This document shows, piece by piece, positions 58,751 to 63,054 of a DNA stretch of 64,000 nucleotides. Under the pieces are notes generated by a model, which worked only from the letters and a program-made list of their open reading frames with translations, was not told where the DNA came from and searched no databases. Source of the DNA: Roseibacillus persicicus (lineage in GTDB: Bacteria; Verrucomicrobiota; Verrucomicrobiia; Verrucomicrobiales; Akkermansiaceae); contig NZ_BMXI01000001.1 of assembly GCF_014651675.1 (NCBI RefSeq), forward strand, positions 65,968 to 129,967, written 5' to 3'. How positions within the stretch are numbered: the first letter of the stretch is position 1; every line of letters starts with the position of its first letter. Both the position numbers and the translations under genes were made by a program.

Positions 58751-59707
58751 TCAAGAACTCAGCGTCGCCGAGCCGAGTTTTCCTCTCACAAAAACGCCCA
58801 CTGCAAAGACAAGGATGACCACTGCAATGAAAACAGGCCATGAGAACTCCCGCTCTTTCTTGGCTGCTTCTCGGACAAGATGCTTGCGACTCGGTTCCGC
58901 AATTCTCTTTTTCGAAAATGGGTCTTTCGGCCACTGCTCCTTGGGCCTGATTCGGTATTTCCCCTTGTAGTATTCCCACCCACCCCAGTCGAAAACGTAG
59001 TCGCGTTCTCCCGCTTTGACTTCTTCCCACCAGTCACGATAGAGATCGACTTCCTGGTAGCTGGCACTGGAGGGAGTGCTTAGATTTTCAGCCCCGTCGA
59101 TGGGGCCAACGCGGAGTTGTTTCAAGGCCATCACCGCTTTGAGGGCATTGGAGTAATATTGGTCGATTGAACTTTGGGGTTCGGTTGGAAGAGGGCGCTG
59201 GAATCCGGTCCGTTCATCTTCAAGCAGTTCTCCCAGCACTTCAACCGTCTCATGCCCAGGGAGAAAACCGAGGGACTCGATGAACTTGCCGCTTTCAATT
59301 TCATAGTAGTACTCGGCACCATAGAGCGGCGAGTCTGGTTTCAGAAATTGACCGGGGTTTTCTTTTTTAAACTCCCGCTCGGCATACACCAGCTCGATCC
59401 GGCGGTCAATTTCACTGCGAACCCAGTGCGCGTAGCCGGGTTTCGACATCATAATTTCTTGAGCTCTTTGAAACACCGCTCGTTCGTCAGCATCCCGAGT
59501 TTCGGGATATCGCCCAAGAGCCAGCCATCTTCGGATAGCTTTAAATTGTTCGGGGTATTCCATAAGGCTGATTTGGTCGAGTTCTCGGTCCGCCCACGGT
59601 CGCCAAGCATCTCCTGTTGGAATATCTGGTCCAGTAACAGCTTGGCAGGTCCCTCCGCCCAAAACTAGAAGCGCAGCCGAAAGAAAAATATAAAGTCTGC
59701 ACTTCAT
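58751..59707 (-). CDS. Signal-peptide and membrane-anchored hypothetical protein
   Basis: 318 residues. The N-terminus MKCRLYIFLSAALLVLGGGT is a signal peptide. A mostly helical, charged middle region (about 30-270) has many tryptophans and tyrosines (DAWRPWADRELDQI, YRDWWEEVKAG, VFDWGGWEYYKGKYR). A C-terminal membrane helix (WPVFIAVVILVFAVGVFV) ends with a short basic tail, so most of the protein faces the periplasm. I do not recognise the family. Its ATG overlaps the stop of the upstream metalloprotease gene by 4 bases (ATGA), so translation is coupled. It may be an anchor, inhibitor or substrate adaptor of that protease; this is inferred from position. Confidence 0.75.
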   Translation of the reverse strand: MKCRLYIFLSAALLVLGGGTCQAVTGPDIPTGDAWRPWADRELDQISLMEYPEQFKAIRRWLALGRYPETRDADERAVFQRAQEIMMSKPGYAHWVRSEIDRRIELVYAEREFKKENPGQFLKPDSPLYGAEYYYEIESGKFIESLGFLPGHETVEVLGELLEDERTGFQRPLPTEPQSSIDQYYSNALKAVMALKQLRVGPIDGAENLSTPSSASYQEVDLYRDWWEEVKAGERDYVFDWGGWEYYKGKYRIRPKEQWPKDPFSKKRIAEPSRKHLVREAAKKEREFSWPVFIAVVILVFAVGVFVRGKLGSATLSS

Positions 59708-62700
59708 GGCGTTGCCTTAGCTGCTTCAAGCTCCTCAATCCAAACTGCAATTTTATCCCATTCACCTTTGACCAGCTGGGTTTTTCGTTTTTTCGGATCG
59801 GGAATGAGAGTTCCACTGGCCATGAGTCGGAGGCGGTGGTTCGTGCCTAGCAAAGGGGCCGGCAAGCGGCCTTCGTCCGGGTGCCCGAGGCCAAACTCGT
59901 GTCCCAGCTCATGGGCGGTGGTGATACAGAGCCCTTGCCGATGCTCCGCTGAGTCGTATTTGTATCCGGCAACGAAAACTATGCGAGGGCGTAAGGTCGT
60001 CTCGTTGAAGCCTGCAGCTTCAGCCAAAGAGTTGTAAGTGGGGTGCTGATACATGGGCTCGGGCATGACAACGACATGCAAATCAGCAACTTCCTTTATG
60101 AGCTCATCTTCGACAGCTTTCTTCTCACTTTCGCTTCCTACATTCATAGCTCCATCGTAGGGTTCAGGAAGTTGACTGCTCGAAGGCAGAGTACCGGAAG
60201 AACCTCCTGCCTCCTCGGGGGGTCCCACATCCCAATCCGGGGTGATCATGGGTTGGAGGGAGACGGTGAAAAAGGCGTTCACCTGTTTGCCGAAGATTTG
60301 ATTGAGTTGTTCTTCCAATTTGGCGCGAAAGGCTTCGTTGGCTCCAGAGAGAGGTTCCTTGTCGTAGATTCTTTGGCCTCCGTCCATGCGCCAGCCAGCC
60401 ACGGGCCAGATGGCAACGGTGAGATTAGGCCTCGGCATAATGGTCATCCCGATGGGGCTATTGAGGGCGGCCACGGAATGGGTGCCATCGGTGAGGACCA
60501 GCTCCATCTCCTCATCAAGGGCAGCCGTCACCCCATTGGGGTCGGACGAATTGACCAGAAACGGTTCCACCGGATTATCGGCAGTGTCATCAGAGAGAAA
60601 GTTCAGGCTGTCATTGGCAATCCGATACCGCTCGACCGCCCCAGCTGGAGAAAGAAGCGAGAACTCCCCAATCCCGTGAGCCGGAACCATCACCCAATAT
60701 CGGTCCCCCGCCACGCCAGGCTCGGACGAAGTGAGGGAAGTGGCATCCACTCCGGTGAATTCCTCATTGTCGATCACTGCGAAGGGAGTCCCCAACCAAG
60801 CCGTGCTGGTCGAGGCGGTATCAAAAGGCTCGGCCAGAATATGACCTCCCCTCCCCAGGCTCTCAATTCCAATACTTTCCCCGGGCTGAAAGCCGGGCAC
60901 AAGTTGCTCCCACTCATAGGTCTCCCCTTGAAACCAAAACGACCCGTCCTCCCGGTAACCCAGCCCATTCCCCCTGAACAAACGGAACGAGCCCAGAGAA
61001 GCCGTCCCCCAGGGAGCTTGGTCAGAAAAGAGCTCGGGATCGTATCCGCTCCGCTGTATCAACATTCCATTCCCCGGAGTAGGGAAAAGAAGGCCACCGC
61101 TCGTTCCAGCCTCAGACAAATGCTCATTGCCTACCTCGTCGAGAACTTGGGTATAAAGCTTGGAATCCAAGCTGCTGAAGGTTGGGCCATAATAGAAGGT
61201 GTGAATCGGTTGGAAACTCGGAAAACCTGTGTTCAAGCTTTCCGCGACGAACTCGTAGGGAGGGGTGACAACTTGTCCTACAGAGGTCTCTCCGGTGGCT
61301 GAAATGGAGAACACCTTGCGATCCTCCAAAACGGCAATGGTGTGAAACCCGTCTTCGGAAACATCCAACGAATAATGATGCCCAATGGCTTTTCCTCCTC
61401 CCGAAAGCAAGCCAGGGTGACCGGGAGCCAGTGCGGCATAGGACACCGGGGCCATGAAGCCACTTTCGCCTCCTGCTTTCTGCGGAGGCGAGCTGCGTTC
61501 CGGCCAGAAGACATAACAGTAGAATTGGTGGGTTCCATCAAACCGTTGGACTTCCCAGTCCCCAATGCCGAGGATCGAACCATCATCCGCAATCGCGGTT
61601 GGCTGGGCAGCAAGAATCCCACCGGTCCCAGCCAGGGCGAGGGGTTGAAAATTCCCTGCTCGCCAAACCCCGTTTTGGTAGAGGACTTCTCCCCGGGCAT
61701 TGACGCTCACGGGCCATTGTGGATTACCCGAAGCGTCGAGCGGAATCCCTTCCTGCTGAAACATCGCGTAGCGTGGCTGTGACTCCGCCAACCAGTCAAT
61801 CCGAGTGTCGCTTGGAACAGCATCCAAGGAATCCGGGATGCTGTCGCCATCGCTATCCAACTGCAAACCATCAGGGATTCCATCCCCATTCGTATCCGCA
61901 TTGAAAGCATCACCTGTTACCCCGTTCTGCCCACCACTGCCCGACGAGGCATTGCTAAACTCAATCCAATCGAGCGAACCATCGCCATCACTATCCAAAC
62001 TCCAATCGGTGACCACGCGGAAGAACTGTCGCGGACCTGGTGACGGAGGGACTGTGGGAGAATTGATTTGGCTGGCCAATTGAGCAGCCTGCGCGGCATT
62101 CATTTCGTCCAATTTGGCAATGACGAGATCGAGAACTTCCTGATTGCGCGGAGAAGGTTGGGAAACCTCCGGGGGCTCAATCGGATCCAAGCCCGGAGAG
62201 AGTGTGACCAGCATGTAGTCTTCAAAGTTCCAAACAGCAAGGGGAGTCGATGCCCAGGCGGGATCCAATTGACCTGCAATCAGATGGGAGTGAGACGAGG
62301 AAGTGGCTGAGTCTATCCAAGTAACCACAACTCCACCACCCGAAGCCACGTTCAATGTTACAGTTACGATTTCAGGGATGTTTTGAGAAACAAGAGGACT
62401 TGCAGGATTGCCACCAGAACCACTGGGCGGCGTTGAAACAACGATCTCACGAAGACCAATGGCAAGTTCGTGTCCCAGCCCATAGACGTGCTCCGTAACC
62501 GTCTCCCACTGGTTCAGATCGCTGCTACGCTCGACCTGATGGCCAACTCCGGGAATCGTTTCCACAACCAGAACCTCCAAGGTCTCGCCTTCGACCGTCA
62601 TCCGGTCCAACCTCCAGTCGAGGCTCGGTCGAAGCTCGGTCGAGGATTTGACTGGGCGAGTAATTGCGGAAAAGGAACCACTAATAGGACAACTGGAAAA

Positions 62701-62711
62701 ACTTTTCTCAT
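59704..62711 (-). CDS. Secreted TSP3/metzincin-like metalloprotease, frameshifted near its signal peptide
   Basis: The main frame runs from about 62640 down to 59704 and is open further up to an ATG at 62733, but that start gives no signal peptide. In another frame the ATG at 62709-62711 opens a textbook signal peptide, MRKVFPVVLLVVPFPQLLA, then stops after 37 codons. Deleting one 11-base unit of a tandem repeat at 62618-62645 joins the two frames exactly (998 residues). The mature protein has a VERSSDLNQWETV module, TSP3 repeats (DSDGDGSLDWIE, DTNGDGIPDGLQ, DSDGDSIPDSLD), a repeat region like HAF propellers (VSVNARGEVLYQNG) and, near the end, the metzincin zinc motif HELGHEFGLGH with a later LRLMASG Met-turn. 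It is probably an exported zinc protease. The frameshift may be phase variation, a recent mutation or a sequencing error. Confidence 0.8.
62618..62645. repeat. 11-base tandem repeat at a frameshift
   Basis: The plus strand reads GTCGAGGCTCG (62618-62628), GTCGAAGCTCG (62629-62639), then GTCGAG (62640-62645): about two and a half units of 11 bases with one mismatch. Because 11 is not a multiple of three, gain or loss of a unit switches the reading frame of the protease gene. Removing one unit restores the signal peptide to the protease frame. Confidence 0.8.
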
Positions 62712-63054
62712 CGCTTACCGAGTCTCTAGTCATTTGAACGAACACTGAACAGTAAAAACGCGCCGTTTGATCCACTTCATTAAGGGCTTCCTCACTGATA
62801 GCCTTATCAGTTCGTCGAGCGCCCCAAACGCTCCTCAAGGTCGTTCAAAGAGTATCGGTAAGACAATACCTTTGTATGCTCATAGCGAATCAGCAGACTT
62901 TGGAACCACTCAACCCGGCTCAACAAAGACTATCCATTCGCCCTCATTTGAGGCCGTAAAAAAACGCAATGAGAGTCTCATGTGAGACCATCACTGCATT
63001 CAACTTGATTCGAGCTGTTAAGACGATTGAAATACCGCCCTCAACCCGCTCTCT

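What the first reader, a model, noticed from the sequence alone, without database searches (positions are those of the whole stretch)
62590..62733. An 11-base tandem duplication puts a signal peptide out of frame with a metalloprotease
The ATG at 62711 opens MRKVFPVVLLVVPFPQLLA, which stops after 37 codons. The protease frame lacks a signal. Removing one 11-base unit (62618-62645) fuses them perfectly to a 998-residue secreted protein. This could be on/off phase variation of an exported protease by slipped-strand copying, a recent loss, or a sequence error.
Basis: seen in the sequence. Interest (0 to 1): 0.66.

Follow-up and report, generated by a model that had tools for sequence, protein, structure and literature searches.

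The report
Signal peptide out of frame with metalloprotease
In a marine Roseibacillus bacterium a secreted-protease gene is broken by a small tandem duplication just after its export signal, most likely an early step of ordinary gene loss, because the same gene family is broken or reduced to scraps, by different lesions, in close relatives.

Summary
On the minus strand an ATG at 62711 opens a 37-codon ORF with a convincing Sec signal peptide. The metalloprotease lies one frame back (-1) and has no signal of its own. A 2.5-copy, 11-base imperfect tandem repeat sits exactly between them; one unit fewer gives 998 in-frame codons. About 25 relatives carry such a signal in frame at this place, so the 37-aa ORF is the detached true N-terminus. 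The switch reading is not supported: the repeat is short and imperfect, absent from 37 other related genomes, and no comparable repertoire was seen in 464 kb of the genome. In the genus, R. ishigakijimensis also has its signal out of frame but without any repeat, plus a decayed second copy; a third genome keeps only a 33-residue scrap; one looks intact. Elsewhere several copies are broken by small indels, and one has a stop inside the zinc motif. Best reading: recent, probably one-way inactivation of a dispensable secreted M12B-like metzincin (about 0.6). Phase variation stays possible (about 0.12). Unexplained: frame breaks in this family cluster in the first fifth of the gene (p about 0.001, small post hoc sample).

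The parts
62598..62711 (-). 37-codon ORF with Sec signal peptide (MRKVFPVVLLVVPFPQLLA), the detached N-terminus of the protease; its stop TGA overlaps an in-frame ATG of the protease frame (ATGA)
   Evidence: signal-like score passed by 1.3% of ATGs; in-frame counterparts in relatives
62617..62645 (.). imperfect 11-bp tandem repeat, 2.5 copies, at the frame change
   Evidence: absent from 37 other related genomes
59704..62628 (-). open reading frame of the mature metalloprotease (end includes the stop), in the -1 frame relative to the signal; the frame is open back to 62844
59707..60606 (-). C-terminal metzincin domain with HELGHEFGLGHP zinc motif and RLM Met-turn, intact
   Evidence: invariant columns in A2-A4; AF2 mean pLDDT 56.5, best solved matches ADAM10/TACE/ADAMTS
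58751..59707 (-). partner gene, 318 aa, own signal peptide, start overlapping the protease stop; similar-sized genes follow the protease in relatives

Best explanation
The locus is a secreted M12B-like metzincin gene in an early stage of loss. A slippage event at a short direct repeat just after the signal-peptide codons added 11 bp (inferred), so a ribosome starting at the true start (62711) stops after 37 codons and the protease is not made with its signal and not exported. The catalytic frame is still open because the event is recent. Shown: the frame break, the repeat, the in-frame signal in relatives, and loss of the same gene by other lesions in congeners. Inferred: that the 11-bp gain is the causal change, that no in-frame product is exported, and that the change is effectively one-way.
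For: Signal peptide in frame in about 25 homologues at the same place. Congeners: R. ishigakijimensis has the signal off frame in the same -1 direction without a repeat and a second copy reduced to an N-terminal remnant with TAG; G003 keeps only a 33-residue C-terminal scrap between partner-like genes; G002 has the signal in frame. Elsewhere G173:C303 has the signal off frame and a TAG in the zinc motif, beside an intact paralogue; G217, G189, G168, G204 and G154 carry other breaks. C-T-C in the array means at least one substitution besides the duplication, as expected of a change that has persisted.
Against: The active-site motif and 965 codons remain intact, so no second lesion proves decay. 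No reads, sister strains or expression data. Breaks cluster at the N-terminus, which plain decay does not predict.
Confidence: 0.6

Rival explanations
1. Reversible phase variation: slipped-strand gain and loss of the 11-bp unit switches export of the protease off and on.
For: Non-triplet tandem unit inside the 5' end of an exported-protein gene, the design of opa genes (PMC5354566); active site intact; frame breaks in the family cluster near the N-terminus.
Against: Only 2.5 imperfect copies, whereas phase-variable ORFs carry hypermutable SSR tracts (PMC11475388); repeat absent from relatives; relatives' breaks have no such repeat; no repertoire of similar loci in 464 kb.
Confidence: 0.12
2. 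The gene is still expressed across the break: re-initiation at the ATGA overlap (62598-62602), an in-frame upstream start (62733 or 62838), or ribosomal frameshifting.
For: ATGA overlap; the protease frame is open upstream to 62844; the same -1 relation recurs in R. ishigakijimensis and G173:C303.
Against: No slippery heptamer in any of the three; no unusual RNA structure, z -1.1, -1.2 and 0.3; a stop of the form NTGA makes an overlapping start codon likely by chance; re-initiation would give a protein without a signal.
Confidence: 0.12
3. Sequencing or assembly error in the window's draft genome.
For: Draft of 92 contigs with no reads available; some breaks elsewhere in the family lie at short homopolymers.
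Against: An 11-bp gain with an internal mismatch is not a usual base-calling error, and a 29-bp array lies within one read (inference).
Confidence: 0.08

Closest known systems
Neisseria opa genes (CTCTT repeats in the leader-peptide region)
   Same: Non-triplet tandem repeat at the signal-peptide end of an exported-protein gene; gain or loss of a unit shifts the frame (PMC5354566)
   Different: opa tracts vary in length across a family of genes; here one 2.5-copy imperfect array, unique to this genome, with no variation seen
Frame-broken genes and pseudogenes of bacterial genomes (fs-gene classes of PMC3711429)
   Same: Single frame transition in an otherwise open gene, no recoding motif, relatives broken by unrelated lesions
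   Different: Breaks lie mostly in the first fifth of the gene
Metzincins of the M12B (reprolysin/ADAM) type
   Same: HExxHxxGxxH zinc motif and Met-turn; weak fold model closest to TACE/ADAM10/ADAMTS; two relatives match Reprolysin_3 and Reprolysin_4 at about 1e-6
   Different: Long N-terminal part with TSP3-like repeats, found mainly in one family of Verrucomicrobiota; the window protein itself passes no Pfam cut-off

Membership tests
Slipped-strand (SSR) phase-variable locus | Reiterated tract long and regular enough to be hypermutable | tested here: not met
   2.5 copies, 10 of 11 identical
Slipped-strand (SSR) phase-variable locus | Unit length not a multiple of three, inside the ORF | tested here: met
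   11 bp between signal and mature part
Slipped-strand (SSR) phase-variable locus | Repeat shared by relatives or by other loci of the genome | tested here: not met
   No match in 37 other genomes; no comparable repertoire in 464 kb
Slipped-strand (SSR) phase-variable locus | Unit number varies within a population | not testable with these tools
   No reads and no sister strain held
Programmed -1 ribosomal frameshifting | Slippery heptamer X_XXY_YYZ in the overlap | tested here: not met
   None in the window, R. ishigakijimensis or G173:C303
Programmed -1 ribosomal frameshifting | Stimulatory RNA structure downstream | tested here: not met
   z-scores -1.1, -1.2, 0.3; pseudoknots not covered
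Decaying gene (pseudogene) | Ancestral frame recognisable from intact relatives | tested here: met
   15 of 23 complete copies keep one frame
Decaying gene (pseudogene) | Further disabling lesions in the same copy | tested here: not met
   965 codons open, zinc motif intact
M12B-like metzincin | HExxHxxGxxH motif and Met-turn | tested here: met
   Invariant in 17 homologues
M12B-like metzincin | Fold of the catalytic domain | tested here: inconclusive
   pLDDT 56.5; best Foldseek hits ADAM/TACE/ADAMTS, E 8e-5 to 1e-3, TM-score about 0.4-0.5

The most novel reading that the evidence does not exclude
The N-terminal end of this protease family is a repeatedly used inactivation site: small indels at the signal peptide or the following linker switch off a costly secreted protease, reversibly or with selection for non-producers, so lineages toggle between secretors and non-secretors.
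Probability: 0.1. Interest if true: 0.55.

Novelty: new member of a known kind. Interest (0 to 1): 0.25.

Why it matters
It shows that an apparent phase-variation locus read from one genome is better explained, once relatives are read, as decay of a dispensable secreted protease. The repeated N-terminal breaks make a testable case for how such genes are lost in marine Verrucomicrobiota.

Tried and rejected
Programmed frameshifting (no slippery heptamer, no structure). A repeat conserved across relatives. A genome-wide set of contingency repeats (464 kb only). Codon usage to locate the frame change: uninformative over the short signal region. The first genome-contig scan with the window protein alone found nothing and the 17-row alignment was too diverse to scan with; the 3-row alignment gave named relatives. 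dN/dS was not attempted: no close orthologue. Papers on Roseibacillus pseudogenes or phase variation in Verrucomicrobiota: nothing specific found.

Full report
What is there. The window lies on contig 1 of a 5.28 Mb draft genome. A congener is Roseibacillus ishigakijimensis KCTC 12986: the 210,419-base contig G001:C104 has the length of NZ_JAENIO010000001.1 and the same junction sequence, so the window belongs to Roseibacillus in the taxonomy used. On the minus strand an ATG at 62711 opens a 37-codon ORF whose first 19 residues look like a typical Sec signal. The protease frame runs one base back, from 62844 to 59704, without a stop and without a signal. Between them lies an 11-bp tandem repeat of 2.5 copies.

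More than chance. In 464 kb of the same genome there are 19 TRF arrays of score 45 or more with period 4-60, so one falls in a given 100-nt interval with probability about 0.5%. Only 1.3% of ATGs open a signal-like peptide by a simple score that 10 of 11 tested family signal peptides pass. In about 25 homologues a signal peptide stands in frame directly before the conserved W...TIPGV...SSDL.W module. The 37-aa ORF is thus the true but detached N-terminus. That the 11-bp gain caused the detachment is an inference: the array reads C-T-C at its one variable position, which needs a duplication plus a substitution, and any net change of the right size modulo 3 would have the same effect.

What the protein is. 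It has about 970 residues after the signal, TSP3-like DSDGDG repeats, and a C-terminal domain with HELGHEFGLGHP and a Met-turn RLM. The zinc-motif and Met-turn residues are invariant among 17 homologues at 24-28% identity to the window protein. Two relatives match Pfam Reprolysin_3 and Reprolysin_4 at about 1e-6; a weak AF2 model (pLDDT 56.5) has ADAM/TACE/ADAMTS structures as its best matches. A partner gene of about 300 aa follows it here and in several relatives.

What relatives show. Of 260 family genomes 63 have a match, many partial. Among 23 copies complete within the fetched DNA, 15 have one continuous frame from signal to active site and 8 are broken (counted by hand). In the genus: the window (signal off frame); R. 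ishigakijimensis (signal off frame in the same -1 direction, no repeat, plus a second copy reduced to an N-terminal remnant with TAG); G002 (signal in frame; N- and C-terminal parts on two contigs); G003 (only a 33-residue C-terminal scrap between partner-like genes). Elsewhere: G217 (break at an A5 run), G189, G168 (break near a G run), G204 (several breaks), G154, and G173:C303, whose signal is off frame against its intact paralogue and whose zinc motif holds a TAG. These lesions differ in kind and place, which is the pattern of repeated loss.

Why not a switch. Known phase-variable ORFs use hypermutable simple-sequence tracts (PMC11475388); opa genes place CTCTT repeats in the leader-peptide region (PMC5354566), the nearest analogue in design. 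Here the tract is short and imperfect, unique to this genome among 38 searched, and not part of a repertoire in the DNA examined. Programmed frameshifting fails both sequence tests. In the scheme of PMC3711429 this falls with pseudogenes and indel mutations.

What stays open. Frame breaks cluster in the first 18% of the gene: 5 of 6 single-lesion copies, 8 of 13 lesions in all, p about 0.001. The sample is small, the zone was chosen after seeing the data, and many of the genomes are metagenome-assembled. The intact active site and open 965-codon frame mean that the loss is recent or that some product is still made. Reads would settle error and mixture at once.

Noticed in passing
58751-59707 (-); L014:1555-2520 (-); L015:6238-7080 (+): A partner gene of about 280-320 aa with its own signal peptide follows the protease in the window and in several relatives; it matches no NCBIfam model and stays behind in G003 where the protease is gone.
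   Followed up: partly
L114:8595-8921; L056:5070-5315: Short second copies of the protease's C-terminal zinc-motif region lie just downstream of full-length genes, suggesting tandem duplication followed by decay.
   Followed up: no
L014, L020, L062, L068, L069, L070, L072, L084: Frame breaks of the family lie mostly in the signal peptide or the first 150 residues, more than an even spread predicts; cause unknown.
   Followed up: partly
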